This document shows, in pieces, positions 2,585 to 17,893 of a DNA stretch of 64,000 nt. The position numbers and the translations under genes are program-made. How positions within the stretch are numbered: position 1 is the first letter of the stretch; each line of letters opens with the position of its first letter. The notes under the pieces are model-generated. The model searched no databases. It saw nothing but the letters and a program-made list of their open reading frames with translations, and was not told the origin of the DNA. Source of the DNA: Bacteroidota bacterium (lineage in GTDB: Bacteria > Bacteroidota > Ignavibacteria > Ignavibacteriales > Ignavibacteriaceae); NCBI GenBank assembly GCA_020161395.1, contig JAIUOE010000007.1, positions 124,001 to 188,000 of the forward strand, read 5' to 3'.

Positions 2585-4636
2585 ATGCGACAAGCACCAT
2601 TCAGACCATTTGATCTTCAGGCTCATTATGAACCTGCAGGAGATCAGCCAAACGCCATAAAGGAACTCACTGAGGGAATCGGGAGGGGTGAGCAATACCA
2701 GACACTTCTCGGAGTGACGGGGAGTGGCAAGACCTTTACAATGGCAAATGTGATTGCCAAACACAATAAACCAACTTTGGTGATATCCCATAACAAAACC
2801 CTGGCAGCACAGCTTTATGGTGAATTGAAATCGTTTTTCCCGAATAATCCGGTGGAATTTTTCATCAGTTACTACGATTACTACCAGCCCGAAGCTTATG
2901 TTGTCAGCAGCGATACATTCATCGAAAAGGACTTCTCCATCAACGAAGAGATCGACCGGCTCAGACTGAAAGCCACCACTTCACTTATCGAGGGGAGGAA
3001 CGATGTAATTATTGTGGCATCTGTTAGTTGCATCTATGGAATTGGTGCTCCTCACGAGTATGCAGAGCAGACCATTTTCCTGCACAAAGGGGATGTTGTA
3101 ACGAAAAAAGCTCTGATGCGGAATCTTGTGAACATCTACTACTCGAGAAACGACATGGAGTTTATGCGGGGCACTTTCAGGATGCGGGGTGATGTTCTCG
3201 AGATTATACCCGCTTACGAGATTGAAGAAGCTCTTCGCATTGAATTTTGGGATGACGAGATCGAGAGAATCTCCGTTATCGAACCGATTACAGGGGATGT
3301 ACTAAGGGAGATAAAAGAGACTGCCATCTATCCGGCAAAATATTTTGTTACTAATCCCGAAAAACAAAAACTCTCCCTCGTACTAATCGAAGCGGAACTT
3401 GAGGAGAGGCTCGCCGATTTCAGGGAGCAGGAGCGATATCTCGAAGCACAGAGGCTTGAACAGCGGACACGATTCGATCTTGAAATGATAAAAGAGGTTG
3501 GCTACTGTGCCGGAATTGAAAACTATTCAAGGCATATGGACCTCAGGGAAAAGGGAACCAGACCCTACTGTCTGCTCGACTATTTCCCCGATGACTTCCT
3601 CATGATAATTGATGAGTCCCATGTTACGGTTTCACAGATAAGAGGGATGTACAACGGCGACAGATCACGAAAGGAAACTCTCGTACATCACGGTTTTCGT
3701 CTCCCGTCAGCGCTTGACAACAGGCCCATGCGATTCGAGGAATTTGAAACCAAGATGAGAAAGGTGATTTTTGTTTCTGCTACCCCGGGTGATTTTGAAC
3801 TGGAAAAGACGAACGGAAAGTATGTCGAACAGATCATTAGACCGACCGGGTTGCTTGATCCTGAAATACAAATCAGACCTGTAAAAACACAAATTGATGA
3901 CCTGATCTCAGAGATCAGGGTCAGAGTACAGAAAGGGGAGCGGACTCTCGTAACCACTCTGACGAAGAAAATGGCGGAAGACCTTTCCGATTATCTCTCA
4001 AAAATTGGAATTGCTGTGAGGTTTATTCACAGTGACATCGATGCACTTGAGAGGGTTGAGATACTTCGGGATCTTCGTCTAGGTGATTTTGATGTTCTCG
4101 TTGGTGTCAACCTTCTGAGGGAAGGACTCGACATGCCGGAAGTGTCTCTTGTTGCAATTATTGATGCCGACAAGGAAGGATTCCTGCGGAGTGCGAGATC
4201 CCTTATGCAGACTGCGGGCAGAACTGCAAGAAATGCAAACGGGCTCGTTATTATGTATGCAGACAAGATAACCGATTCGATGAGACTTGTAATTGAGGAG
4301 ACTGAACGGCGCCGCAAAATACAGACGGAATACAATAAAAAACACGGAATCACTCCAAAAACGATGTTTAAGAGCATCGAGGAGATTATGAGTTCCACTG
4401 CAATTGCTGACATGCGCAAAAAAGATTATGACCATTCGAGTTCACAATCACAGTTTTCCAAAGTTGCTGAGCCAGTCCTCAAGTTTATGAGCATTGATGA
4501 ACGAAAAGCGATGATAGAAGAACTGACGGTTGAGATGAGAAAAGCAGCAAAGGATCTCGAGTTTGAAAGAGCGGCTTTCCTGAGAGATGAGATCGAGAAA
4601 CTGAAAAAATCGATTCCGGAGAGAATAGATATTTAG
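2585..4636 (+). CDS. uvrB: excinuclease ABC subunit B
   Basis: UvrB is the damage-verifying helicase-like subunit of nucleotide excision repair; it is loaded by UvrA and recruits UvrC. The 683 residues are the usual length. Visible marks are Walker A GVTGSGKT at 43-50, the DNA-clamping beta-hairpin region with [10 protein letters not shown], the Walker B IIDESH near 342-347, the helicase motifs [13 protein letters not shown] and QTAGRTARN, and a C-terminal UVR domain ([16 protein letters not shown]) that binds UvrC. No frameshift or missing motif is seen. The neighbours are unrelated in function. Confidence 0.97.
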
Positions 4637-4664
4637 TTATGAGTTATGAGTTTTTAGTTATGAG
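4635..4664. repeat. short AGTTATGAG repeats
   Basis: Three copies of AGTTATGAG (4635, 4642 and 4656) start in the uvrB stop codon and fill the gap to thrA. It is one of several simple intergenic repeats in this window. Confidence 0.6.
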
Positions 4665-4715
4665 TGTTTGCGGGTTGACTGATAATAGTTTTTAATCAAT
4701 TAGAAAAATGAGTTT

Positions 4716-7118
4716 ATGAAGATAATGAAATTTGGAGGCTCTTCGGTAGGGAGCCCTGAAAGAATAAAAAATGTAATTGAAATTGTGAGAGCCAGAAGGG
4801 AAGAGAATATCGCAGGAGTGGTCTTTTCGGCTTATTCGGGCGTTACAGACAGTCTTATAAAAATTGCGAATCTGGCACTTTCGCGCGATAAAAGCTATGT
4901 TTCGCTTTTTGAGGAACTGCAACAGAAACATATTGATTTTGCGAAAGAGCTCGTTTCTGTAGGGAAGGAACAGGACCTGTTGATTGCGGGGCTGTCATTG
5001 AGGCTTACCGAGCTGAAGGAGATTCTCGATGGAATTTTTCTGATCAAGGAACTGACACCGAAAACACTCGATTATGTCCAAAGTTTTGGTGAACTTCTCT
5101 CCTCCTACACGATTACGATAGCCTTCAAAACTTCAGGTATTGATGCTGAATTCCTTGATGCGAGAAAGGTGATCAAGACCGACAATAATTTTACAGGTGC
5201 ACAGGTTTTGAAGACCGAAACATATTACTACATCAAAGAGGAGTTTTCGAGGAACAACAAACTCAGGGTGATTACCGGTTTCATAGCTTCGACACATGAA
5301 AATGAAACCACGACCCTCGGAAGGGGTGGTTCCGACTACACAGTCGCAATATTCGGAGCAGCTTTGGAGGTGGATGAGATCGAGATTTGGACTGATGTTG
5401 ACGGAGTTCTTACTGCAGATCCGAGAAAAGTTACTGATTCGTTTATCGTAAATGAATTATCGTACGAAGAAGCAATGGAGCTTTCTTATTTTGGTGCAAA
5501 AGTGATATATGCACCCACAATTCAGCCTGCGATGGATCTGGAGATTCCGGTTAGAATTAAAAACTCATTCAATCCTGACCACCCCGGCTCGATAATAAAG
5601 AAGACCCCCGGTAAAAACACAAATGAGATTACCGGACTTGCAAGCATCGATAATATCGCCCTGCTTCGAGTTGAAGGAGGTGGCATGGTGGGTGTTACAG
5701 GAATTGCCGGCAGACTTTTCAGAACACTCGCCCTCAACAGAATTAATGTGGTACTGATTACCCAGGCATCTTCAGAGCATTCCATTTGTGTGGCTGTTGA
5801 GCCTAAATCAGCATCGATTGCAGTAAAACATCTCGCAAAAGAGTTCGAGGAGGAGATCAGATCAAGGAAAATCTCCACGGTTGAGAAAGAGGAAGGTTTA
5901 TCGGTAATTGCAGTCGTTGGTGGTAACATGCGTCACCGTCACGGGGTCAGCGGAAGAGTTTTCAAAACCCTTGGCAACCATAAAATAAATGTTCACGCCA
6001 TTGCACAGGGGTCTTCGGAACTGAATATATCGTTTGTAATTTCAACGACCGAGCTGAAGGAGGCAATGAACGCCCTTCACAACGAGTTCTTCTTCAAGGG
6101 GAGAAAGGTTTGGAGCATATATGTAGCCGGTCCGGGAAATGTCGGATCAAAATTTATCAGTTTCCTCGGGCAAAAGAAGGACCTGAATGACCATATCGAG
6201 TTGAAAGGGATTATAAACTCAAAAAAGATGATCTTTGCGGATAACCTGTTGGCTTCTGACGATATTCCCGGTTCATTGAACAACTCATCCGCACAGGCGA
6301 ACCGAAAGGAATTTTTAAATGCTGTCATCGGTGACAGAAATCCATTCAAGATATTTGTGGACTGCTCAGCGAGTGAGAAGGTTATCGATTTTTACGCACC
6401 GTTTCTGAAAGAAGGTGTGAATATTGTGGCAGCCAACAAGATTGCAAATTCGTCATCCCTTGAAGACTGGTTTGAACTCAAAAATCTTGCAAAGGAGAGC
6501 AAGGCGAGGTTTTTATACGAAACGAATGTGGGAGCGGCACTTCCCGTAATTCGCACGATGAAAGACCTGCTTGGTACGGGTGATGAGTTGATAAAAATCG
6601 AGGGCATCATGTCCGGATCTGTCAACTACATTTTGACAGCCGTGTGGAACGGGAAGGATTTTTCCACCGCACTTGGTGAAGCAAAGGAGATGGGATTGAC
6701 CGAACCTGATCCTGTGATAGATCTTTCAGGTATGGATATTGCCAGAAAACTTTTGATACTTGTCAGGGATGCCGGATTCAGATATGAGTTGTCTGATATC
6801 GAAATCACCCCTCTCGCAAAACGGAATGTGGAGAATGAAGTTGAGTATCTTGATATCGATAAAATGGTCGGTGAAGCCCGTGCTGACGGGAACAAAATAA
6901 AATTTATAGCATCATTTTCAGAAGGAGAACTCAAGGTTTATCCGAAAGTCTGTACGCCCGATGACCCGCTTTTCGCAGTAGACGATGTGAAAAATGTTTT
7001 CATATTTTATACAAAGAGATACAACAAATATCCATTGGTAATCATGGGACCCGGTGCAGGGGTTGACATTACCGCTTCGGGTGTTCTGGATGATGTACTG
7101 AAAGTGATAGGACTTTAA
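4716..7118 (+). CDS. thrA: bifunctional aspartokinase / homoserine dehydrogenase
   Basis: This enzyme does the first and third steps from aspartate to threonine and methionine: aspartate phosphorylation, and NAD(P)H-dependent reduction of aspartate semialdehyde. The 800 residues match ThrA/MetL fusions. The kinase starts with MKFGGSSVG (residues 4-12) and runs to about 300. Two ACT regulatory units follow (about 315-460), with GVTGIAGRLFRTL and GVSGRVFKTL. The dehydrogenase begins near 465 with the nucleotide loop VAGPGNVGS and contains the family stretch GIMSGSVNYI. The ACT units suggest feedback control by threonine. It leads a thrABC operon: thrB starts two bases after its stop. Confidence 0.96.
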   Translation: MKIMKFGGSSVGSPERIKNVIEIVRARREENIAGVVFSAYSGVTDSLIKIANLALSRDKSYVSLFEELQQKHIDFAKELVSVGKEQDLLIAGLSLRLTELKEILDGIFLIKELTPKTLDYVQSFGELLSSYTITIAFKTSGIDAEFLDARKVIKTDNNFTGAQVLKTETYYYIKEEFSRNNKLRVITGFIASTHENETTTLGRGGSDYTVAIFGAALEVDEIEIWTDVDGVLTADPRKVTDSFIVNELSYEEAMELSYFGAKVIYAPTIQPAMDLEIPVRIKNSFNPDHPGSIIKKTPGKNTNEITGLASIDNIALLRVEGGGMVGVTGIAGRLFRTLALNRINVVLITQASSEHSICVAVEPKSASIAVKHLAKEFEEEIRSRKISTVEKEEGLSVIAVVGGNMRHRHGVSGRVFKTLGNHKINVHAIAQGSSELNISFVISTTELKEAMNALHNEFFFKGRKVWSIYVAGPGNVGSKFISFLGQKKDLNDHIELKGIINSKKMIFADNLLASDDIPGSLNNSSAQANRKEFLNAVIGDRNPFKIFVDCSASEKVIDFYAPFLKEGVNIVAANKIANSSSLEDWFELKNLAKESKARFLYETNVGAALPVIRTMKDLLGTGDELIKIEGIMSGSVNYILTAVWNGKDFSTALGEAKEMGLTEPDPVIDLSGMDIARKLLILVRDAGFRYELSDIEITPLAKRNVENEVEYLDIDKMVGEARADGNKIKFIASFSEGELKVYPKVCTPDDPLFAVDDVKNVFIFYTKRYNKYPLVIMGPGAGVDITASGVLDDVLKVIGL

Positions 7119-7119
7119 G

Positions 7120-8082
7120 ATGACTAATTCGACTCCCCACAGGCTGGTAAGGAAATTTGCAAGGGCATTCGCACCTGCTACCGTGTCAAATGTGGGTCCC
7201 GGTTTCGACCTGACGGGATTCCCTGTTTTTGGAATTGGAGACGAAGTTGAAGTGAAACCGAACGGGACCGCGGTCTCCCGGATAGTTTCAATTATTGGAA
7301 ACGACAGCCTGAGCTTGGTTCTTGAAGAAAATACTGCGGGTATGGCGATTAAAAGTTTTCTGGCTGAAAATGCCCCCGGGGAGGGGGTGGATATCACGCT
7401 GCACAAGAACATGCCAATCGGGAGTGGCATGGGGTCGAGTGCTGCGAGTGCTGCCGCGGGAGTTGCTGCTGTAAATGCGTTGCTTGAGGCACCACTTCCT
7501 GCTGAAAAACTGATAAAGTATGCTCTTGATGGTGAGATGGTTGCATCGGGGACGCGGCATGGTGACAATATCATTCCGTGCATTACAGGTGGATTCATTT
7601 TAATTACCGGTCTGGAGAATTTTGAATTTATTAAAATTGACCCCCCTCCCGGGCTTGTGGTAATGCTGATTCATCCGCAGGTCGAGATTAAAACCAGTCA
7701 TGCAAGATCGATTCTTCCTGAAATGATACCGGCAACGGATGCGATCAGGCAGACATCTGCGGCTATGATGCTTGTTACGGGGCTCTTAAAAGGTGATTAT
7801 GCGCTTATAGCCGCGGCTTCACAGGATTTCATTGCGGAACCATACAGATCAGATTTGATACCCGGTTATCACGGGTTGAAGCGGGAAATTTTATCGCACG
7901 GAGCCTGTGCCTTCAACATATCAGGATCAGGTCCCACCTCGTTTGCTTTTTTTGATAATGAGAATAAAGCCGGGAAATTAATACCGTGGATCAAAGATTA
8001 TTATGAAAAACTTAAAATTGAGGTGGATATTTTCATCTCAAAAGTAAATAACAATGGCGTCAAAGTTTTGGAGGTTCGATGA
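7120..8082 (+). CDS. thrB: homoserine kinase
   Basis: A GHMP-family kinase that phosphorylates homoserine to O-phosphohomoserine. The 320 residues are normal length. The N-terminus has FAPATVSNVGPGFD, the ATP loop PIGSGMGSSAASAAAG lies at about 99-114, and a third GHMP motif (NISGSGPTSFAFF) lies near 265. It sits between thrA (2-base gap) and thrC (4-base ATGA overlap), so the three are translationally coupled. Confidence 0.95.
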   Translation: MTNSTPHRLVRKFARAFAPATVSNVGPGFDLTGFPVFGIGDEVEVKPNGTAVSRIVSIIGNDSLSLVLEENTAGMAIKSFLAENAPGEGVDITLHKNMPIGSGMGSSAASAAAGVAAVNALLEAPLPAEKLIKYALDGEMVASGTRHGDNIIPCITGGFILITGLENFEFIKIDPPPGLVVMLIHPQVEIKTSHARSILPEMIPATDAIRQTSAAMMLVTGLLKGDYALIAAASQDFIAEPYRSDLIPGYHGLKREILSHGACAFNISGSGPTSFAFFDNENKAGKLIPWIKDYYEKLKIEVDIFISKVNNNGVKVLEVR

Positions 8083-9377
8083 GATATATCAGTACCCGAA
8101 ATCCGCAAACTCAATACAAATTCAAGGATGCACTCTATCTTGGGATGGCTCCCGATGGCGGACTTTTCCTTCCTGAGAGTATTCCGCACCTTCTTGAAGA
8201 ACCGGACGAATTAAAAGAACTTTCGCTGACGGAACTTGCTAACCATTTCCTGAATCCATTTGTTACTGGAATAAGCGAGAGGGAGTTTACGCGTATTGTT
8301 GAGCGTACATTCAATTTTGATATTGAAATTAAACATGTCTCCGGGAAGATTTGGGTTGCGGAGCTTTTCCATGGTCCCACCCTCGCTTTCAAAGATTTTG
8401 GTGCAAGATTCCTTGCAAATGTGATGTCATATTTCCTTCACGAAGAGGGGAAAAGATGCAAGATTCTGGTAGCCACTTCGGGTGATACCGGAAGTGCTGT
8501 CGCCAACGGTTTTCTTGGTATGGACTGTGTTGATGTGGTGCTTTTATATCCTTCGGGTAAAGTCAGTTGGACTCAGGAACAACAACTGACCACTCTCGGG
8601 AAGAATGTTACAGCGCTGGAAGTGAAGGGAAATTTTGATGACTGTCAGAGACTGGTAAAAATGGCATTTGCGGATGAGGAGTTGAGGAGCAGGGTCAATC
8701 TGTCGTCTGCAAACTCGATCAGTATTGCGAGACTATTGCCTCAGGCAGTTTACTATATTTACACATACCTCAATCTTTATGAAAAACTTGACAATATAAA
8801 CTTCGTTGTACCGAGCGGGAATCTTGGTAACATTACTGCCGGATTGATGACGAAATTCGCGGGCTTGCCCGTGAAGAAATTTTACGCTGCTCTGAATAAC
8901 AATGATGTTTTTGCAAAGTATCTCGAAACTGGAGAATTCGTTCCTCAGCCGACAATTCAGACCCTTTCGAATGCCATGGATGTGGGAAACCCAAGCAATC
9001 TTGAAAGAATAACTTCGCTATACCATGGTGATCTTAACGCTATGCGAAGAGATATTTCCGCACGGAGTTATTCAAATGATGAAACATACTTCATGATTGG
9101 GGCAACATGGAATGAGTGCGGATATCTGGCAGATCCCCATACCAGTGTAGGTTTGTTGTATGCGCGAGACATGGGGGTTAAATTACCCAAGGAAAATTTT
9201 GTTGTTATGTCCACTGCTCATCCTGCAAAGTTTTACGATCATGTCAGTTCTGCTACCGGTATCAATTTTGCTGTTCCCGAAAGACTCGAAGCCTCTCTAA
9301 AAAAGAAGAAAGAAAGTGTATTAATGGGAACTGAATATGATGAGTTTAAGGAGATACTCTTGGGAGGTGCGGGGTGA
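8079..9377 (+). CDS. thrC: threonine synthase
   Basis: A PLP enzyme converting O-phosphohomoserine to threonine, the last step of the pathway. At 432 residues it is full length, starting with the typical MRYISTRN. The PLP lysine is Lys105 in LAFKDFGARF; the phosphate-binding ATSGDTGSA and the NSISIARLLPQ stretch are present. It overlaps thrB by four bases. Its last roughly 510 bases (from about 8846) have a second, slightly different copy at 12334-12850. The 3' end here may therefore have been brought in by the segment that follows, or copied. Confidence 0.95.
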   Translation: MRYISTRNPQTQYKFKDALYLGMAPDGGLFLPESIPHLLEEPDELKELSLTELANHFLNPFVTGISEREFTRIVERTFNFDIEIKHVSGKIWVAELFHGPTLAFKDFGARFLANVMSYFLHEEGKRCKILVATSGDTGSAVANGFLGMDCVDVVLLYPSGKVSWTQEQQLTTLGKNVTALEVKGNFDDCQRLVKMAFADEELRSRVNLSSANSISIARLLPQAVYYIYTYLNLYEKLDNINFVVPSGNLGNITAGLMTKFAGLPVKKFYAALNNNDVFAKYLETGEFVPQPTIQTLSNAMDVGNPSNLERITSLYHGDLNAMRRDISARSYSNDETYFMIGATWNECGYLADPHTSVGLLYARDMGVKLPKENFVVMSTAHPAKFYDHVSSATGINFAVPERLEASLKKKKESVLMGTEYDEFKEILLGGAG

Positions 9378-9467
9378 TATCTACATTCTCTACAAAGTCA
9401 AAAATTTAAGTTGTCGCAATCTCCAATCAGGAAGCTTTAATCTATTAAATCCGTGGTCAAATATCGG

Positions 9468-9950
9468 TTAATCCACGGACTTATTTCGTAATTCAAGATA
9501 ATATAAACTGGTGTAGTCATTCTCGATAATCTGAAATAACATTATTTCGTACTTCTGATTTTGAAACTTCTCAATAACATTTCCCGTACGCTGTTCGGCA
9601 ACACCCGTTAACTCATAGCCATTGTTTATAAGTTCTGCTTTATAATGCTCCAGAAACTTTTTATCCTTTGAGGTTAATGAAAGATAGGAGTAACCATCCG
9701 GAGAGACAAATATCGAGATGTCTTGGGATTTAATCTGTTTACTTTTTGCTTTCTTGTATTTATACTCGACACTGTTTTCGTTTTTTGTTGAATTTTGGTA
9801 TTTGAATCCCTCCTTAATCAATAAGGAGTCCATATTTTTTTTGTTCGCACAATTATCAAAAACAATCTCCATTTTTACACATGGAATATACTGAGCGTAA
9901 GTTGGACTGATGCCCAGAAGTAACAATATGATAAATAAAAAGTTCTTCAT
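9468..9950 (-). CDS. small secreted protein of unknown function
   Basis: A 160-residue protein with a clean signal peptide (MKNFLFIILLLLGISPTYAQ). The mature part is rich in Lys, Asn and Tyr, has an early Cys pair (Cys24 in YIPCVK and Cys35 in NCANKK), and shows no domain I recognise. It is the first of two leftward genes in a stretch flanked by duplicated thrC sequence, and is probably accessory. It is likely periplasmic or surface-attached; there is no lipobox or sorting domain. Confidence 0.6.
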   Translation of the reverse strand: MKNFLFIILLLLGISPTYAQYIPCVKMEIVFDNCANKKNMDSLLIKEGFKYQNSTKNENSVEYKYKKAKSKQIKSQDISIFVSPDGYSYLSLTSKDKKFLEHYKAELINNGYELTGVAEQRTGNVIEKFQNQKYEIMLFQIIENDYTSLYYLELRNKSVD

Positions 9951-10133
9951 ATCATCCTGCTGAATTGTTTGGTTAAGAAAATAGTTAAAATCTTTGCGTT
10001 CACGAAAGAAATCAAAAAAGAGAGACTTTTCATCTATTATTTGAAATACTTCACCTTTGTCGTGGTATAAAATCCATGCCGCTCACAAAATTACACATAT
10101 TAACTGTGTCTAACAAATTGTTCTGGTAAATAA

Positions 10134-10312
10134 AACCAAGTTTTCTTTTTTATCTATGTACTTCTTCTGAACCAAGGAGCCTTAAAGGTTCACAAGAGAG
10201 CTGATTTATCAAAAATTAAAAAAACCGAGGAGCATTTTGATTCAATCGTTCTCCCCAAAGAGATGATTTCAACGAAGATGTAGTTACCAAGTTAATTGAA
10301 TGTTTTAAATGA
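10134..10312 (+). pseudogene. 3' remnant of an unidentified gene
   Basis: An open reading with protein-like composition runs through LLNQGALKVHKRADLSK and KKTEEHFDSIVLPKE. A one-base backward shift near 10262 then lets it continue as DDFNEDVVTKLIECFK with a stop at 10310-10312, directly before a terminator. The two halves join smoothly, which suggests a real gene end that lost its start and gained a frameshift. The family is not recognised. Confidence 0.3.
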
Positions 10313-10344
10313 AGGCTGTCTTAAAATTGGGGCAGCCTTTTTTT
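10313..10344 (+). terminator. rho-independent terminator
   Basis: AGGCTGTC (10313-10320) pairs with GGCAGCCT (10331-10338, one G-T pair) before a T run. It points rightward with only a gene remnant upstream, so it is probably a leftover of that lost gene. Confidence 0.65.
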
Positions 10345-10410
10345 GATCAAAGTGAAAAGATAGATATTGGAAAAAATATTAATAGATCAGGTACCGCTTT
10401 CGGTTTAATC

Positions 10411-11790
10411 TTACTTTATCCGAATAAACTTATATTTTGCCACAAATGTATCTGGGATGGCTAATTTATAATTATCTCTTTTAAAGTTGTATGTCAATTT
10501 AAATGAGTCAACCCTCCAAGTATCCGGAAATTTTGGATAAACATCACCTGAAATAGTGTTACCATCAAGGTCATGAGTGTAAGAGTTCATAACAGTAGTT
10601 ACCCATTCATTTTCCTGCCACTCTTGTAAAGTTAAAGTCAACATATTCCCGTTTTTGTCATAAGTATTTGAGGTTCTGTTAACCTTGAACCACCCGTTAT
10701 TTCCCCAAAATTCCTCTAAAGAGATTAATAAGTTTCCCTTTTTATCAAAAGTGTTGGATCGTCTGCTTTTATTTACCCACCTGTTATTTTCCCAAAATTC
10801 CTCCAAACAAATTAATAAATTTCCCTTTGTATCAAAAGTGTTGGATCGTCTGCTCGAATTGACCCACCTGTTATTTTCCCAAAATTCCTCTAAAAAGATT
10901 AATAAATTTCCCTTTGTATCAAAAGTGTTAAATGATCTGCTGGAATTGACCCATTTGTTTCCTTTCCAGTTTTCTATTAAACTGATTAGCAAGTTTCCTT
11001 TTGTATCATAAGTGTTAGATGATCTGCTGGAATTGACCCATGTATTGTTTTCCCAGATTTCTTCCAAATAGATTAATTGATTACCATTTTTATCATAAGT
11101 GGATGAGGCTTTTTCCAAATTTGTCCAACTATTTTCATCTAAATATTTATTCGAATTCGTTAATCGATTTCCATCTTTGCCATAGGTATAATATTGATCA
11201 TCAGTATTAAAATGACTGTTATCACCCCACTGTTTCCACAATTGTGTCAACATTTTCCCGTGACTGTCATATGTATAATAAACTTTTGTTGCTTCATACA
11301 CCCTGATAGAATCTTCGGGGATACCCGGGAGAATACCTGTGGTGTCATAAAATCCTTCTGCCGGAAATCTAACAAAATATGTTCTGGTTTGTTTACTAGA
11401 TTCTTGCAACTCTGTTAACTTTTTCCCATTCTCATTATAAGTGAATGACTCCCTCCATGAAAAAATCCATTTATTGTTAGCCTCTCCTCCCCACTCTTCC
11501 CAAAGTTCAGACAAAATGTTTCCCGATGTGTCATAGGTATAGGATACTCGACTGGGGAATGCTTGTCCGATCACCTGTTTTGTCATCCTTCCTTCATCAT
11601 CGTAGGTGAAGTTGTAAATCTCTACCGGAGTGGTGACAGATAAAAGAATATATCTTCCTGAATCAGGTGGTATGTTTGATGATTGGTGTAGCAAATTCTT
11701 TGATCTTTCAAGTGTTTCACCATTACAACGGTTTTGAAATAAAAACAAGAAAGAGAAACATAGAAAAACGAATAAATATATTGAACGCAT
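10411..11790 (-). CDS. secreted YD-repeat (RHS-like) protein
   Basis: A 459-residue protein with an N-terminal signal sequence (about 1-24) and then some twelve copies of a 25-30-residue motif of the form xxTYDxxGNxLxxLxExWxxNxW. This resembles the YD/RHS repeats of surface and toxin-delivery proteins, which fold into beta-wrapped shells. There is no RHS core, toxin tip, lipobox or T9SS sorting domain; it ends in AKYKFIRIK. The middle repeats are 29 residues (87 bp) long and nearly identical in DNA, so the array has grown recently. It was probably transferred with the surrounding segment. A binding or shielding role is a guess. Confidence 0.7.
   Translation of the reverse strand: MRSIYLFVFLCFSFLFLFQNRCNGETLERSKNLLHQSSNIPPDSGRYILLSVTTPVEIYNFTYDDEGRMTKQVIGQAFPSRVSYTYDTSGNILSELWEEWGGEANNKWIFSWRESFTYNENGKKLTELQESSKQTRTYFVRFPAEGFYDTTGILPGIPEDSIRVYEATKVYYTYDSHGKMLTQLWKQWGDNSHFNTDDQYYTYGKDGNRLTNSNKYLDENSWTNLEKASSTYDKNGNQLIYLEEIWENNTWVNSSRSSNTYDTKGNLLISLIENWKGNKWVNSSRSFNTFDTKGNLLIFLEEFWENNRWVNSSRRSNTFDTKGNLLICLEEFWENNRWVNKSRRSNTFDKKGNLLISLEEFWGNNGWFKVNRTSNTYDKNGNMLTLTLQEWQENEWVTTVMNSYTHDLDGNTISGDVYPKFPDTWRVDSFKLTYNFKRDNYKLAIPDTFVAKYKFIRIK
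10656..11177 (-). repeat. 87-bp tandem repeats inside the YD-repeat gene
   Basis: The word TATCAAAAGTG or its close variants recurs at 10656, 10743, 10830, 10917, 11004 and 11091, exactly 87 bases apart. The units beginning at 10743, 10830 and 10917 are the most alike. Each encodes one 29-residue repeat. Confidence 0.85.
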
Positions 11791-12323
11791 ATTTGTCTCC
11801 TGTGAAATAATTCGTCCAAATAAAGTAGATTGTTGACTTTAACTTATGAATAAAGAATGGATTTGCAAAAAGTTAATAAAAAATTTTCAATACCAGCAGT
11901 AATGATTTATTTGCTAGTGCGATGATTTTAAAATTGGCATACTCAGCCTTTAAAGCCTTCCCGGCATAGGTCCACCGGAATGGTTTCGCCTGAGTTAGGT
12001 TATATGTTTCTAATATATTCAACAATCTGATTCATAAGTTCTTGCTTCGATTACCATAACCCTCCCTTCAATACATCCTTAGTTAACATGTTAAACCATA
12101 ATTCTATTTTGTTCAGCATGGATGAATTTGTCAGTGTCTCACGGGTATATACATTTTTGGAGTTGCTCAACCAGGACTTAATGACTTTGTGCTTGTGAAC
12201 CTTTTTAACACATTAATCATACCATTTGCCATTTAAGTATTGTACATTTTGACAAGAAATGATTACTTTCGACTGAAAGAATATCGATTGCTCTCAAATT
12301 TAAATATTTTTTGAGGCGACTTT
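11791..12323. other. 533-base gap holding a transposase relic
   Basis: There is no intact gene. It contains the upstream region of the leftward YD-repeat gene, a decayed IS630-type transposase fragment on the minus strand (about 11930-12200), and AT-rich sequence running up to the duplicated thrC end. Confidence 0.6.
11930..12200 (-). pseudogene. IS630-family transposase C-terminal relic
   Basis: Read leftward from 12200, the translation gives VHKHKVIKSWLSNS, then SSMLNKIELWFNMLTK, a stop codon, SKQELMNQIVEYI, and after a frameshift ETYNLTQAKPFRWTYAGKAL. These fall in the order and spacing of the IS630 DDE transposase end (HKHKxVxxWL, SWLNxxExWF, LTR/K, a KSxxEL helix, AKPFxWTYxGK). The front of the gene is gone, and an in-frame stop plus a frameshift make it dead. 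No terminal inverted repeats were recognised. Confidence 0.75.
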
Positions 12324-12857
12324 ATGAGAAGTCTGATGACGAAATTCGCCGGTCTTCCCGTGAAGAAATTTTACGCAGCGCTGAACAATAATGATGTTTT
12401 TGCAAAGTATCTCGAAACCGGAGAGTTTGTTCCACAGCCGACAATTCAGACCCTGTCGAATGCCATGGATGTGGGAAACCCCAGCAATCTTGAAAGAATA
12501 ACTTCGCTTTACCATGGTGATCTGAACGCGATGCGAAGAGACATTTCCGCAAGGAGCTACTCAAACGATGAGACATTTTTCATGATTGGAGCAACCTGGA
12601 ATGAGTGCGGATATCTGGCAGATCCCCATACCAGTGTGGGACTGCTTTATGCAAGTGACATGGAGGTTAAATTGCCCAAAGACAATTTTGTGGTTATGTC
12701 CACAGCTCATCCTGCAAAATTTTATGGCGATGTCAGTAGTGCAACCGGTATCAATTTTGATATTCCCGAAAGACTCGAAACATGTCTAAAAAAGAAGAAA
12801 GAAAGTGTTGTAATGGGAACTGAATATGACGAGTTTAAGGGGCTATTACTGAAGTAG
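12324..12857 (+). pseudogene. thrC: duplicate 3' third of threonine synthase
   Basis: This 177-codon open frame matches residues of about 257-428 of the full thrC at 8079-9377, with 13 amino-acid changes in about 170 by my count. The first 80 or so residues are identical although the DNA differs at many third positions. It lacks the PLP lysine and the whole front domain, so it cannot be an active enzyme. A GAGG precedes an ATG at 12324, so it might still be translated. The pattern suits a displaced native thrC end left by an insertion. Alternatives are a partial duplication or gene conversion. Confidence 0.85.
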
Positions 12858-12998
12858 CTTCGCAGTCCGGTGGCAATTTGATCTCGTTTACGCATATTCT
12901 GAAGAAAAAATTTGTGATTTTTCGGAATTGAGTATTTTTTTTCTATTTTAAACAATTGACTTTTTATTTAACGGGAAGAAAAATAATTTTGAGGAGTT

Positions 12999-13565
12999 AT
13001 GTCACAGTCAGGCCAAACACCGGTTCGAAAGAAAAAAAACAACCAGATGCAGATGATGGGAATCCTCATCGCAATCATAGTTGTGTTGACAGCAACAGTG
13101 CTCATCATCGTGTTGAGCAACTCACCCAATCAAAACAAACCGGGCACGGAAAATCAGTCAGCCAGGGACACTGCCGGCAACAAACCAGGTACTCAGGCAC
13201 CCGAAACAGTCTATGTTGAAAAAACGGAGAAGAAGAATGGAGACGGGGATACTTATGCCGGTACTCTGCCCGGTAAATACCCTGAAGTAAGTTTAAGAGA
13301 ATTGACATTTGATGATATCAGAGGGAAGCATGTTTGGGAAGTGATATTAATGAGAAATGAAGTGTATGCACGATACGGTTACAAATTTAAATTGAGCTGG
13401 GAATTGAAAGATCATTTCAACTCGCAGCCATGGTACACACCAAGATATGATAATGTGGATCAGATGCTTACCCCCCTTGAAAAGAAGAATGTCAATTTTC
13501 TCGTTCTTCATACACCGAAATATGACATCAACAATATAAAGGGCAGCAACACTTATGTTCGTTAG
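12999..13565 (+). CDS. membrane-anchored YARHG-domain protein
   Basis: A 188-residue protein with a charged N-tail, one membrane helix (about 24-44, GILIAIIVVLTATVLIIVL), a low-complexity linker, and a C-terminal YARHG domain (about 100-170). The domain contains LRNEVYARYGYKF-like sequence (here MRNEVYARYGYKF) followed by FNSQPWYTPRYDN and LTPLEKKNVNFL. YARHG domains are extracellular and often travel with peptidases or cell-wall enzymes; their role is unknown. A strong TGAGGAG site precedes the ATG. The next gene, a serine hydrolase, starts inside its last codons (13555). Confidence 0.8.
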   Translation: MSQSGQTPVRKKKNNQMQMMGILIAIIVVLTATVLIIVLSNSPNQNKPGTENQSARDTAGNKPGTQAPETVYVEKTEKKNGDGDTYAGTLPGKYPEVSLRELTFDDIRGKHVWEVILMRNEVYARYGYKFKLSWELKDHFNSQPWYTPRYDNVDQMLTPLEKKNVNFLVLHTPKYDINNIKGSNTYVR

Positions 13566-14748
13566 AGGACATAAGAAGTTACCGAAGTGGAGTCCGTTAA
13601 GGATTCTGATATTTTCACTGGTGATCATTTTTTCGATTTGCGGTTGTTCGGAAAGCAAGAATCAGCAACAGATTTCCGATGTCAAATCAACGCCTGACAG
13701 CGTACACCCGGAAACCGTTGAACCTGAAAAAGCAGAGCAATTTGATTCAGCGCTTGTAGCATCTCTCACTAAACTGGTGGATTCAGCCTCATTTTCAGGT
13801 GTTGTAAATATCACTTCGAAAGACGGGAAAGTGTTTGAAAGAACATACGGTTACTCAAACTTTGAAGAGGGAATAAAAAACAGTGATTCCACATTTTTTC
13901 AAATTGCTTCCCTCACAAAAATATTCACAGCAATTGGTGTGTACGACCTTGTGAACAAAGGGAAAATGAAATTCACCGACCCCTTCACAAAACATTTGAA
14001 GACAAAACTGCCTTACAACAATGTTCAAATAAAGCACCTTCTTAATCACACCAGCGGAATCCCTGATTATTTTAGTCTCGCAGAAAAGTACTTTAAAGGT
14101 CCGGCGGGACCTGACAACCGTGAGATTTTTGGTTTGTACTCAGCCAACTCTGTGAAACTGAAATTCACTCCCGGAAGCAATTTTGAATACTCAAACATCA
14201 ATTATATTATTCTTTCTTCAATAATCGAAGATGTCTCGGGAATGCCGTTTGAGCGGTATCTGAGGGAATCGGTTTCTGTCGTTCCTGATCACCCGTCTGT
14301 CTATTCCAAAAATGAATTGAAGGATTCTTTCAAACAGGTGGCAATTGCTTATGCTTCAACCGGGAAGAAATATCAAAAAGTTTCTGCCGGTGCGACAAGG
14401 ATCCTTGACAACAGGAAAGGGTCAGGAGGATTATATATCAGAGCCGGACAACTTCATGACTGGCTATGCCGCCTTTTCTTCAAAAATGACTATTATTCCG
14501 GGGCATTGCACAATGCCGGACTGAATAAATCGCTGGATTCGAGAAACTACATTTTTGGATTTTACAAAGGGAAGATTGCAGGGAATGAATATCTCTACTG
14601 TTACGGAAAAAATCCGGGGATGAACTCTTTTTGTGCGTATCTGCCAAAACAGGAAATTATAATAACAATATCAGGCAATCATGAATTTAACAGCCAGAAT
14701 ACAGGTGAAAAGTTTGTTTCAACGATTATTTCAGCAAAGAAGAAGTAA
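13555..14748 (+). CDS. beta-lactamase-fold serine hydrolase, probable lipoprotein
   Basis: A 397-residue protein of the class C beta-lactamase / penicillin-binding fold (often labelled serine hydrolase). The catalytic S-x-x-K is Ser119-Leu-Thr-Lys122, LLNHTSGIPDY follows, and the tyrosine motif is YSN near 211-213. The usual third motif (H/K-T/S-G) appears replaced by CYGKNPGMN, so the activity may be altered. The N-terminus has a hydrophobic segment ending in SICGC, a plausible lipobox with Cys31. It overlaps the YARHG gene by 11 bases and is itself overlapped by the M15 peptidase gene, suggesting one envelope-related operon. Confidence 0.82.
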   Translation: MFVRGHKKLPKWSPLRILIFSLVIIFSICGCSESKNQQQISDVKSTPDSVHPETVEPEKAEQFDSALVASLTKLVDSASFSGVVNITSKDGKVFERTYGYSNFEEGIKNSDSTFFQIASLTKIFTAIGVYDLVNKGKMKFTDPFTKHLKTKLPYNNVQIKHLLNHTSGIPDYFSLAEKYFKGPAGPDNREIFGLYSANSVKLKFTPGSNFEYSNINYIILSSIIEDVSGMPFERYLRESVSVVPDHPSVYSKNELKDSFKQVAIAYASTGKKYQKVSAGATRILDNRKGSGGLYIRAGQLHDWLCRLFFKNDYYSGALHNAGLNKSLDSRNYIFGFYKGKIAGNEYLYCYGKNPGMNSFCAYLPKQEIIITISGNHEFNSQNTGEKFVSTIISAKKK

Positions 14749-15595
14749 AAATTTGTTTAAGTGGTTGGTCGTATTCGGGTTATTATCGCTGTGTTGTCAG
14801 TCGGAAGTCAAGACCGAAACAAAACATGCCTCACCCAAACCGGAAGTTGAGACCGGACAGAAGAAGCCACACCCTTTCGTGATCGCGTATCCTGATTTTA
14901 TCGATTCAGTCTCCTCAAATATTATCTATTGGAAAGACGGTACGAAAATGCCATTGAAAACCACATCAAAAAAAGAGATCGATCTTAAGAAAATAAGTGA
15001 CAAGGAATTTGAAAGGCTGCTCTCCACTTCCGATCCTTTCATGATGCTGTCACCCGAATATCCATACTTGAAAGAAATTAAGGCACCCGGTAAAAATGAA
15101 GATCCTGGTCGATTCAGGAACATTGAATTTTTAAAGAAAATTTATGGCGCCAATCAAGGCAAAGTCGGGAAAAATCTTGTTACAGTGAAGTGGCTCAGGA
15201 AGAATGTGAACAAGTCGTTTCAGGTCAACAAGATGAACGGTGCTGCTGCATCGCTTCAAAAAATTTCGGATGAGCTTGATAAACTCCCGAAAAAATTCAT
15301 GAAGTATCTTGACAATCCTGCCGGCACATTCATGTGGAGAAACATTGCAGGCACCGACAACCTGAGTGTGCACAGTTTTGCCATCGCAATTGACATCAAT
15401 GTGAATCAGAGTCACTATTGGCGGGGATACAAAAAGGAGAAAGACGGGTTACTGAAGTTCAGGAATAATATCCCGATGGAGATAGTGGAAATTTTCGAAA
15501 AGCACGGATGGATATGGGGCGGCAGGTGGTACCATTTTGATACGATGCACTTTGAATACCGCCCCGAAATAATAGAGTCCGCTAAGAGAAGGTGA
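14681..15595 (+). CDS. M15-type D,D-carboxypeptidase-like lipoprotein
   Basis: A zinc peptidase of the M15 (VanY-like) group, expected to trim peptidoglycan peptides in the periplasm. The motif SVHSFAIAIDI (about 231-241) supplies the S-x-H-x6-D zinc pattern, and WYHFDTMHFEYRPE near the end supplies the second histidine motif. The ATG used here overlaps the previous gene by 68 bases. A TTG at 14753 would give MFKWLVVFGLLSLCC, a neater lipoprotein signal with a lipobox at the Cys pair, and may be the true start. It ends 14 bases inside the convergent gene 15582-16697. Confidence 0.82.
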   Translation: MNLTARIQVKSLFQRLFQQRRSKNLFKWLVVFGLLSLCCQSEVKTETKHASPKPEVETGQKKPHPFVIAYPDFIDSVSSNIIYWKDGTKMPLKTTSKKEIDLKKISDKEFERLLSTSDPFMMLSPEYPYLKEIKAPGKNEDPGRFRNIEFLKKIYGANQGKVGKNLVTVKWLRKNVNKSFQVNKMNGAAASLQKISDELDKLPKKFMKYLDNPAGTFMWRNIAGTDNLSVHSFAIAIDINVNQSHYWRGYKKEKDGLLKFRNNIPMEIVEIFEKHGWIWGGRWYHFDTMHFEYRPEIIESAKRR

Positions 15596-16697
15596 TGTTC
15601 CTTTCCTTCAGGTGGTTCAGAACATAGTCGAAGCAGGTATCTGACATACCGATGATTTCGGGCGGAAAACAACCTTTTTCGGTGAAGAGTCCATTGAGAA
15701 GCAAACCCGCACCAGCTGTACATGTGTAACCTGTGGTTCGGGACATTGATGAAACTCCCGATTCGGGGTCATACCTGTCGAGAAGTGTCTGTATAACCTC
15801 AATTTCCTCACCCGCAACGGTTCTTTGGGACCTGAGCCGCATCACCGTGAACTCATGTTCTGCTGCACCAAGTTTCCAGTCCTTGAAAAGTAACTTCGAA
15901 GTAAAATCTCTTGGTTTTACCATTTTTCCTTGAAATTCAATTTCATCTTCGGAGAGGAATCCGACATGTCTGAGGGCTTTTATCAAGTCGATATGTCCCG
16001 GATAACGGAGTGTCATTTCCCGCATGTCATCAACGGGGATGGTCTCGAGGATTGATCTAAGTCCATCGGTGTAGAAAGCCTCCAGAGTGCCGATTCCGTC
16101 AAAATCCACCATTTCACTTCCGGAAAGAGCTTCACGGGTTACAATTCTGCCACCTTCCTTCACACGGGCGGGACGGGTATATTCTTCAAGCACATCCACG
16201 GGTGAAAATGGTGCCTTATACTGGAAGGGATATCTTCTTTCCGCCGGCAAACCGCCAACCATGCACTCGAGGAATTTCACCCCTCCTTTCGCATACTGGT
16301 TTCCGAACCAAAGATTGCTCAGTCCCGGCGCCACTCCAAAATCAACTATCGCGGTTACTCCTTTTTCTTTTGCGAGTTTATTCAATGGGGAATAATCCTC
16401 AGGAAAGAAGGAGATGTCGACGATATTTTTCCCGGCGTTTATAACCGTTTCCACGGTTTTATAACCCATAAAGCCGGGAACGGCACCGACAACAATATCT
16501 GCATCTTTTATCAGTACACCTGTGTTTTTCGCATCCGACAGGTCGGCAGAAACAGTGTTTATACCATATTGTGCGAGAAGAGAGAGATTGCCTTCATCGA
16601 GATCGACAGAGGTGACCGCATATGATTTTGCGAGGTCACGGGCAATTGCGCGACCGACCATACCGGCTCCCAGAACTGTTACTTGCTTCATAATCAT
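15582..16697 (-). CDS. saccharopine dehydrogenase-like oxidoreductase
   Basis: A 371-residue enzyme with an N-terminal Rossmann loop VLGAGMVGR (about residues 8-16), followed by DADIVVGAVPGFMG and VDFGVAPGLSNL, which mark the LYS9-type saccharopine dehydrogenase family. Family members act on saccharopine, carboxynorspermidine or related amino-acid conjugates with NAD(P). The exact substrate is unclear and no lysine genes are nearby. A second start, MKQ at 16691, is equally possible. It is convergent with the M15 gene, overlapping it by 14 bases. Confidence 0.8.
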   Translation of the reverse strand: MIMKQVTVLGAGMVGRAIARDLAKSYAVTSVDLDEGNLSLLAQYGINTVSADLSDAKNTGVLIKDADIVVGAVPGFMGYKTVETVINAGKNIVDISFFPEDYSPLNKLAKEKGVTAIVDFGVAPGLSNLWFGNQYAKGGVKFLECMVGGLPAERRYPFQYKAPFSPVDVLEEYTRPARVKEGGRIVTREALSGSEMVDFDGIGTLEAFYTDGLRSILETIPVDDMREMTLRYPGHIDLIKALRHVGFLSEDEIEFQGKMVKPRDFTSKLLFKDWKLGAAEHEFTVMRLRSQRTVAGEEIEVIQTLLDRYDPESGVSSMSRTTGYTCTAGAGLLLNGLFTEKGCFPPEIIGMSDTCFDYVLNHLKERNITFS

Positions 16698-16785
16698 CCG
16701 GAGTTTATGAGTAAAAAATAATCAATATTACAAAAATATAAGAAAGACGGGTAGCTTTTTTTTAATAAATGCTTATATTTGAATA

Positions 16786-16877
16786 ATATTTTTACCAAAG
16801 TTTGTTGACTTGTTCTTCCCCTGACAAGTCAACCTTAATGACGATCCCCGGCTACCCCCCATTGCCGGGGTTTTTTT
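16786..16877 (+). ncRNA. candidate small RNA with two hairpins
   Basis: Between two divergent genes, a 10-bp perfect inverted repeat GTTGACTTGT / ACAAGTCAAC (16804-16813, 16824-16833) is followed by a GC-rich hairpin with a T run. A TATATTTG at 16774-16781 fits the Bacteroidetes -7 box TAnnTTTG. No reading frame of note lies between box and terminator, so a free-standing RNA of about 90 bases is possible. A leader of the 16970 gene is the alternative. Confidence 0.4.
16846..16877 (+). terminator. rho-independent terminator with no gene upstream
   Basis: CCCCGGC (16846-16852) pairs with GCCGGGG (16864-16870), followed by seven T. There is no T run on the other side, so it works rightward, yet the gene to its left runs leftward from 16697. 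Confidence 0.85.
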
Positions 16878-16969
16878 ATGCCCTGTCATAATTTCCTGAC
16901 CTGACTGTTCCGCCTGTTTTGTCTATTTTACTTATGTAAAAAAAATCTTTTATTTAAAGGAAACATATA

Positions 16970-17893
16970 GTGAGATCAATTACAGTTATGCTTCTTTTGT
17001 TTTTTGCGGTTTCAGTGACAGAAGCCCAGAGAACAGAGAAAGTAGTGTCAATGACGAACAAAATTCTTGTTGCTCCGCAGGAATCACCCGATGGTAAAAC
17101 CATTGCATTTACGCAGGAAGGTTACAACGGGATATTTCTGATGAACAGCAACAGGGAAATCAAAGAATTAACAGCAGACAATGCTTCCGGTTTTGGATTC
17201 CGGTGGCTCAACGATAATTCAGGAATTGTAGCGCGCAGTGCCAGATTTATCGACATACGCCGCGAAAACAGCGTGGTAATCTACAGTCTGAATGGCGAAA
17301 ACACACTTCAATTGAGCGAGTTTTCGGGAAGGATGACCATAATGCCTTCTGTTTCCACCAGCGGAGATATCTGTTTTGTGGAAAACGGCACTCTGAAAAG
17401 CTACGATCCGCTCACGAAAAACTCTTCTCTTTCATCACCGAAAGGCATTGCCGCATTTATTGAGAATGATAAAATATCGGTCGTTTCAGCGGGTTCTGCA
17501 AAAAGAGTGATTGAACCGGTAAAAGGTCAAAGGTGTATTAATGCAACACTGTCACCCGACGGGAGCAGGATTGCATTTGAAATTCTCGGCGGGAATCTTT
17601 ATCTGATAAATTCTGATGGTTCAGGACTTGTCGATCTTGGTAGGGGCTACCGTGCTGCATGGTCTCCCGACTCAAAATATATTTCGTATATGCTCACCGA
17701 AGATGACGGACACTTCATAACAGGATCGGAATTGTATATCGTAAAAACTGACGGTTCCGGTAAGAAGATGATCACAAATTCCACCGATAAAATAGAGATG
17801 AACCCTTCATTCAGTGCCGATGGTAAATCAATTTATTTTGACAATGCCACTGACGGAGCGATCTATAAAATGGAAGTGGAGGCATTCAAATGA
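16970..17893 (+). CDS. secreted TolB-like beta-propeller protein
   Basis: A 307-residue protein with a signal peptide (about 1-19, ending in TEAQ) and repeated PD40/TolB-type blades: SPDGKTIAFTQEG, SPDGSRIAFEILGG, AWSPDSKYISYML, FSADGKSIYFDN. Such propellers are protein-interaction platforms in the periplasm or at the surface. It starts with GTG after an AAAGGA site. Its end overlaps the next gene, the T9SS amidase, by four bases, so the two are probably co-produced and may work together. No catalytic residues are evident. Confidence 0.78.
   Translation: MRSITVMLLLFFAVSVTEAQRTEKVVSMTNKILVAPQESPDGKTIAFTQEGYNGIFLMNSNREIKELTADNASGFGFRWLNDNSGIVARSARFIDIRRENSVVIYSLNGENTLQLSEFSGRMTIMPSVSTSGDICFVENGTLKSYDPLTKNSSLSSPKGIAAFIENDKISVVSAGSAKRVIEPVKGQRCINATLSPDGSRIAFEILGGNLYLINSDGSGLVDLGRGYRAAWSPDSKYISYMLTEDDGHFITGSELYIVKTDGSGKKMITNSTDKIEMNPSFSADGKSIYFDNATDGAIYKMEVEAFK

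What the first reader, a model, noticed from the sequence alone, without database searches (positions are those of the whole stretch)
8846..12857. Segment that inserted in thrC and rebuilt or duplicated its 3' end
The last ~510 bases of thrC occur twice, flanking 3 kb of accessory genes. In the first 80 codons the copies differ only at silent positions, so both evolved under selection as working thrC ends; a decaying local duplicate would not look like this. A foreign segment carrying its own thrC end, leaving the native end at 12324-12857, explains it. No intact integrase is present.
Basis: partly seen in the sequence, partly recalled or inferred. Interest (0 to 1): 0.7.

Follow-up and report, generated by a model that had tools for sequence, protein, structure and literature searches.

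The report
Foreign segment replaced thrC's tail
A three-kilobase piece of foreign DNA seems to have recombined into the threonine synthase gene, giving it a new working tail and leaving the old tail stranded downstream; it looks like a clean example of a known way bacteria pick up DNA rather than a new kind of mobile element.

Summary
A 507-bp stretch of thrC's 3' end (8845-9351) recurs at 12334-12840, 88.8% identical, around 2953 bp of 33% G+C DNA (flanks 43%). The 23 codon differences in codons 256-336 are all silent. A congener (G003, about 89-90% identical here) has the empty site: one thrC followed by the gene at 12999; codons 1-255 joined to the displaced copy align with G003 as one 2995-column block. 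The copies are as far apart (dS 0.57) as either is from G003 (0.59 and 0.39), yet both look selected, which argues strongly against a recent duplication within this lineage. Distances and rates favour the displaced copy as native, but topology tests cannot decide. No integrase was found. The insert holds an orphan secreted-type protein, a YD-repeat-like protein, a probable IS630-type scrap and, unexpectedly, the decayed 3' end plus terminator of fumC. Best reading: donor DNA from a related species, anchored by homology in thrC and joined illegitimately at codon 256 (homology-facilitated illegitimate recombination). The place behind thrC differs stepwise across the genus. Closest parallels: e14 in icd, and Vibrio/Rhs orphaned 3' ends. 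Interest is moderate to low.

The parts
8079..9377 (+). full-length thrC (threonine synthase, 432 aa); 5' part native, 3' part (copy A) probably donor-derived
   Evidence: 94.6% aa identity to G003 thrC
8844..9362 (+). copy A: codons 256-428 of thrC, the in-use 3' end; ends ...LLGGAG* where G003 and copy B end ...LLK*
9378..12330 (.). inserted accessory DNA, 33.4% G+C, absent from the G003 site
9468..9950 (-). 160-aa orphan protein with signal-like N terminus (by eye); distant tandem relatives (24-29% identity) in G001 and a weak match in G094
10224..10356 (+). decayed 3' end of fumC (last 19 codons, stop at 10281-10283) plus 3' UTR and terminator-like stem 10311-10340
   Evidence: 71.9% and 73.0% nt identity to the fumC ends of G000 and G003, coding and non-coding
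10411..11790 (-). 459-aa YD-repeat-like protein with a 4.8-copy 87-bp tandem repeat; family common in the order
   Evidence: TIGR01643 E 3.5e-5; Pfam RHS_repeat only below cut-off
11888..12212 (-). probable broken IS630-type transposase C-terminal remnant
   Evidence: weak: NF033545 E 0.013, DDE_3 E 0.029 for 12054-12212; 11876-12025 has no Pfam or NCBIfam match but matches an annotated transposase over 26 of 50 aa and a G003 scrap
12324..12857 (+). 177-aa ORF whose residues 4-177 are copy B, the displaced thrC end (homology from 12333); probably the native end
12999..13565 (+). YARHG-domain gene, the downstream neighbour of thrC in G003

Best explanation
A linear fragment of chromosomal DNA from a related species, carrying the 3' part of its thrC plus about 3 kb of downstream accessory DNA, entered the cell. 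Homologous recombination within thrC anchored one end (crossover upstream of codon 256, possibly near codon 160). The other end, without homology, was joined illegitimately into the resident thrC at codon 256. Result: a hybrid, presumably working thrC with a donor tail, the donor's accessory DNA, then the old resident tail stranded downstream. Shown: repeat, empty site, divergence and selection on both copies, composition, no integrase found. Inferred: direction (A donor, B native), linear DNA uptake, illegitimate right joint.
For: Empty site in G003; codons 1-255 joined to B align with G003 as one 2995-column block at 90.05% and read as an intact gene. A-B dS 0.57 is no smaller than the species distance (median of 190 80-codon windows 0.56, sd 0.29). 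Private changes syn:nonsyn are A 26:11, B 14:6, G003 15:6, so B lost function recently: with a fraction f of its branch neutral, P=0.02-0.04 at f=0.3 and 0.08-0.11 at f=0.2. A recent event with no integrase found favours an enzyme-free route. In codons 256-300, 15 codons differ among the three: B and G003 agree against A in 8, A and G003 against B in 2, A and B against G003 in 2, three-way in 3, so B is G003-like from its first codon. Silent divergence of thrC from G003 rises at codon 159 (CUSUM permutation p=0.029). The insert carries pieces already decayed (fumC end, transposase scrap), as expected of passive chromosomal DNA. ComEC and DprA families occur in 4 of 4 genomes of the genus, but also in 10 and 11 of 14 control genomes.
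Against: No donor was found, so the donor gene order and the right joint cannot be read. Topology tests accept A+B, B+G003 and A+G003 alike (p-AU 0.61, 0.54, 0.25). The silent difference A-G003 vs B-G003 alone is not significant (Fisher p=0.09), and silent divergence varies widely elsewhere. Competence genes do not prove competence.
Confidence: 0.55

Rival explanations
1. Single crossover of a circular DNA that carried a thrC 3' fragment (Campbell-type integration), with the crossover anywhere along the repeat, so that A may be wholly or partly native and B wholly or partly foreign.
For: Gives the same order of parts; topology of A, B and G003 is unresolved; a nearby tract, 13231-13530, is about 99% identical to G003, as if exchange occurs on the B side too.
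Against: B is closer to G003 and A has the excess of private changes, already in codons 256-300; Pfam gave no plasmid or phage domain for the insert ORFs tested, and PHROGs only weak short matches of unknown function, best E 0.0033.
Confidence: 0.15
2. An e14-like integrative element that uses thrC as attachment gene and carries a replacement 3' end; its integrase has been deleted.
For: Same anatomy as e14 in icd: rebuilt functional end with mostly silent changes, old end displaced to the far side (PMC11148124, passages read).
Against: Displacement looks recent, leaving little time to lose the integrase; no integrase found; no viral contig matched the thrC patterns; repeat is 507 bp against 165 bp for e14.
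Confidence: 0.12
3. An old full duplication of thrC before the G000/G003 split, both copies kept under selection, later collapsed by deletion in G000 and lost in G003.
For: A-B divergence equals the species divergence.
Against: Needs two copies kept for long and a loss in G003 (one thrC match each in G003 and G002, and three pieces of one 502-aa ORF in G001); does not explain the low-G+C foreign DNA between the copies.
Confidence: 0.1
4. Assembly chimera between two coexisting species.
For: Reads are not available; the source type of the assembly is unknown.
Against: A DNA search of the whole genome with 8846-12900 finds only this place and two short partial matches, neither at the right joint; the copies differ by about 12%, enough for assemblers to separate; genome listed as 100% complete, 0.53% contaminated, 21 contigs.
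Confidence: 0.04

Closest known systems
Homology-facilitated illegitimate recombination (HFIR): competent S. pneumoniae, Acinetobacter and P. stutzeri (PMC2884548, passages), rarely E. coli conjugation (PMC3240628, outline and abstract)
   Same: One end joined by homology, the other without; foreign DNA between; hybrid gene at the anchored end
   Different: Here inferred from a genome, between species about 10% apart; the non-homologous joint cannot be read without the donor
Orphaned immunity genes and 3' ends at Vibrio T6SS and Rhs loci (PMC5361080, passages read)
   Same: Incoming module anchored in the upstream gene pushes the old 3' part downstream, where it persists; those authors also propose an HFIR-like route
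   Different: Their target is an effector locus with selection on immunity genes; here a biosynthetic gene, with no sign that the stranded end is useful
Prophage e14 in E. coli icd (PMC11148124, passages read)
   Same: Gene end rebuilt by incoming DNA (12 changes in 165 bp, two conservative replacements), old end displaced to the far side
   Different: e14 is a prophage with an integrase gene; here none found, a 507-bp repeat and a 3-kb insert

Membership tests
Homology-facilitated illegitimate recombination product | homology to the recipient at one junction | tested here: met
   thrC is continuous with G003 up to 9356 (2829-9356 at 89.1%)
Homology-facilitated illegitimate recombination product | no long homology at the other junction | tested here: inconclusive
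   B starts abruptly at codon 256 after unrelated DNA; about 2 bp shared with the G003 sequence left of it; donor sequence unknown
Homology-facilitated illegitimate recombination product | foreign DNA between the junctions, absent from the unoccupied site | tested here: met
   empty site in G003, insert 33% G+C; foreign origin inferred
Integrase-borne element in a gene 3' end (e14 type) | integrase gene next to an attachment site | tested here: not met
   no integrase among the ORFs, nor by Pfam on the three insert ORFs tested
Integrase-borne element in a gene 3' end (e14 type) | incoming DNA rebuilds a functional gene end and the old end lies on the far side | tested here: inconclusive
   order of parts fits; function and which end is old are inferred
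Recent local gene duplication | copies closer to each other than to the congener | tested here: not met
   dS A-B 0.57, A-G003 0.59, B-G003 0.39; topology itself unresolved

The most novel reading that the evidence does not exclude
In this genus, accessory genes travel as passive modules made of a housekeeping gene's 3' end plus a convergent accessory gene. The insert region shows two such modules in a row (thrC end + 160-aa gene; fumC end with terminator + YD-repeat gene). Each would use the conserved gene end as a homology anchor and so land behind housekeeping genes without any recombinase of its own.
Probability: 0.07. Interest if true: 0.65.

Novelty: new member of a known kind. Interest (0 to 1): 0.32.

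Why it matters
It shows, with an empty site and a measurable clock, what looks like a gene end swapped between species about 10% apart together with new cargo, in a lineage that I take from recalled sequence signs to be Bacteroidota-like. If anchoring in housekeeping gene ends is common there, it would explain how orphan accessory genes spread without mobile-element genes.

Tried and rejected
Recent duplication within the lineage: rejected, because A-B is not closer than either is to G003. B as a neutral fragment over its whole branch: rejected, P<=0.0001. Virus-borne origin: no thrC pattern match in viral contigs; 9 pattern matches to the 160-aa protein there, none a relative. tRNA or Rfam family: none (whole window; for 8000-14000). 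Duplicated core-gene ends as a habit: about 479 kb of G000 gave 17 rows of local direct repeats (2 on C7, 14 on C8, 1 on C10; thrC is one of them), and 80 kb of G003 gave none, counting repeats of 80 bp or more 1-30 kb apart. The others fall in neighbouring secreted-type paralogues or their C-terminal ends, or are a 95-bp pair; this is judged from the translations by eye, and not every C8 row was placed singly. Three other differences from G003 (near 1780, 20340, 35008) show no overlapping matches of 150 bp or more, hence no such duplication. A fumC-YD pair: no YD match in the 30 fumC loci fetched (of 164 genomes with fumC; flanks about 1.5 kb). The 160-aa protein: nothing convincing in Pfam, NCBIfam or PHROGs. 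Papers holding thrC, genomic island and insertion site together: none.

Full report
What is there. The window is part of a 4.07-Mb genome in 21 contigs (G000:C7:124001-188000). The genes at 4716-9377 are in thrA-thrB-thrC order; thrC was confirmed by Pfam, the other two are named by recall. The 3' part of thrC recurs 3489 bp downstream: 8845-9351 vs 12334-12840, 507 bp at 88.8% identity. The first 23 differing codons (256-335) are all silent; replacements begin at codon 337. Between the copies lie 2953 bp of 33.4% G+C DNA, against 43.2-43.3% on both sides.

The insert. It holds a 160-aa orphan gene (9468-9950, minus); besides G000, 2 of 164 genomes searched in the order match, three tandem relatives in G001 and a weak one in G094. 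It holds a 459-aa YD-repeat-like gene (10411-11790, minus), a family with matches in 78 of 164 genomes of the order, G000 included (NCBIfam YD repeat E 3.5e-5). A probable IS630-type transposase end, broken, lies near 11888-12212 (minus). Its support is weak: profile E-values 0.013 and 0.029 for one piece and none for the other, a 26-residue match to an annotated transposase on two Oscillatoria plasmids, and a similar scrap in G003. Among the 30 fumC loci compared, only those two share the non-coding part; G001 matches the coding end alone. The intact fumC of G000 is on another contig, so this is a second stray housekeeping 3' end. No integrase was seen among the ORFs or by Pfam on the three insert ORFs tested; PHROGs gives only weak, short matches of unknown function.

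Empty site and history of the place. The congener G003 has one thrC (L104:5450-6739, minus) followed directly by the YARHG gene that in the window stands at 12999. Window 2829-9356 matches G003 at 89.1% and 12331-18302 at 89.9%. Codons 1-255 joined to copy B align with G003 as one block of 2995 columns at 90.05% and read as an intact threonine synthase. In the more distant congeners G001 and G002, thrC is followed directly by a convergent gene that resembles the saccharopine-dehydrogenase-like gene at 15582-16697 (judged by eye from the translations). So three genes stand behind thrC in G000 and G003 but not in G001 and G002, most simply by gain (loss is possible), and the present insert is found only in G000 of the four genomes held.

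Which copy is foreign. NG86 dS is 0.57 for A-B, 0.59 for A-G003 and 0.39 for B-G003. The median for G000-G003 is 0.56 over 190 windows of 80 codons, sd 0.29. A duplication within the lineage after the species split should make A-B clearly the smallest; it is not. Private changes (syn:nonsyn) are A 26:11, B 14:6, G003 15:6. These come from a simple one-step rule: of those called nonsynonymous, five (four in A, one in B) lie in codons where no amino acid differs, so selection is if anything understated. A neutral fragment would show about 2.6-3.6 nonsynonymous per synonymous change, so B was part of a working gene for most of its history and was stranded recently. A has more private changes than B (37 vs 20, p=0.03), which with the distances favours A as incoming and B as native. 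Against this, the tree is an unresolved trichotomy: A+B has 61% ultrafast-bootstrap support with an internal branch of 0.007 and 58% in a five-sequence tree, and an AU test accepts all three arrangements (p 0.61, 0.54, 0.25). The difference in silent divergence from G003 alone gives p=0.09. A tract downstream of B (13231-13530) is about 99% identical to G003, a sign that exchange may also touch that side. I therefore state the direction as likely, not shown.

Mechanism. B is preceded by unrelated DNA and resembles G003 from its start: in codons 256-300, B and G003 agree against A in 8 of 15 differing codons, A and G003 against B in 2. So the right joint is abrupt, with no long homology visible. 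On the left, homology runs on through thrC; silent divergence from G003 rises at codon 159 (p=0.029), which may mark the crossover but is weak given the scatter elsewhere. One homologous joint, one apparently non-homologous joint, foreign DNA between them and no recombinase gene found fit homology-facilitated illegitimate recombination. That process is described for competent Streptococcus pneumoniae, Acinetobacter and Pseudomonas stutzeri (PMC2884548 passages) and, at low frequency, for E. coli conjugation (PMC3240628 outline and abstract). Vibrio T6SS and Rhs loci show displaced, orphaned 3' parts, for which an HFIR-like route is proposed (PMC5361080 passages). The e14 prophage in icd shows the same kind of end product with an integrase: 165 bp, 12 changes, two replacements (PMC11148124 passages). 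ComEC and DprA families occur in 4 of 4 genomes of the genus, and in 10 and 11 of 14 control genomes, so DNA uptake is possible but not specially supported.

Verdict. It is a tidy instance of a known process. What could become more interesting is the second stray 3' end (fumC), which hints that gene ends may serve as anchors more than once in this lineage; in about 479 kb of G000 scanned, no further local core-gene case was recognised.

Noticed in passing
   Followed up: partly
window 13231-13530: 300-bp tract about 99% identical to G003 amid about 89-90% identity; the YARHG gene has dS 0.12 against a window median of 0.56, suggesting recent exchange or strong constraint.
   Followed up: no
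L106:5531-7039 (G001): thrC of G001 carries two in-frame repetitive insertions (EIEKE-like and GSKGSFSV-like units), giving a 502-aa threonine synthase.
   Followed up: no
L203:8504-8598 and 10191-10283 (G000:C7): 95-bp, 96% identical direct repeats on either side of a 489-aa gene (8752-10221, minus; ATPase-like by eye), the second overlapping its start; looks like a small inserted or duplicated unit.
   Followed up: no
L211, L212 (G000:C8) and L221 (G000:C10): Neighbouring secreted-type genes share about 240-290 bp of 88-94% identical 3' ends (T9SS-type sorting domains, named by recall), as if gene conversion keeps these tails alike.
   Followed up: no
window 1780, 20340, 35008: G003 carries 3.2, 8.5 and 4.1 kb at these points where the window has 92, 49 and 665 bp; the first two lie at or within 15 bp of a gene's 3' end.
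   Followed up: no
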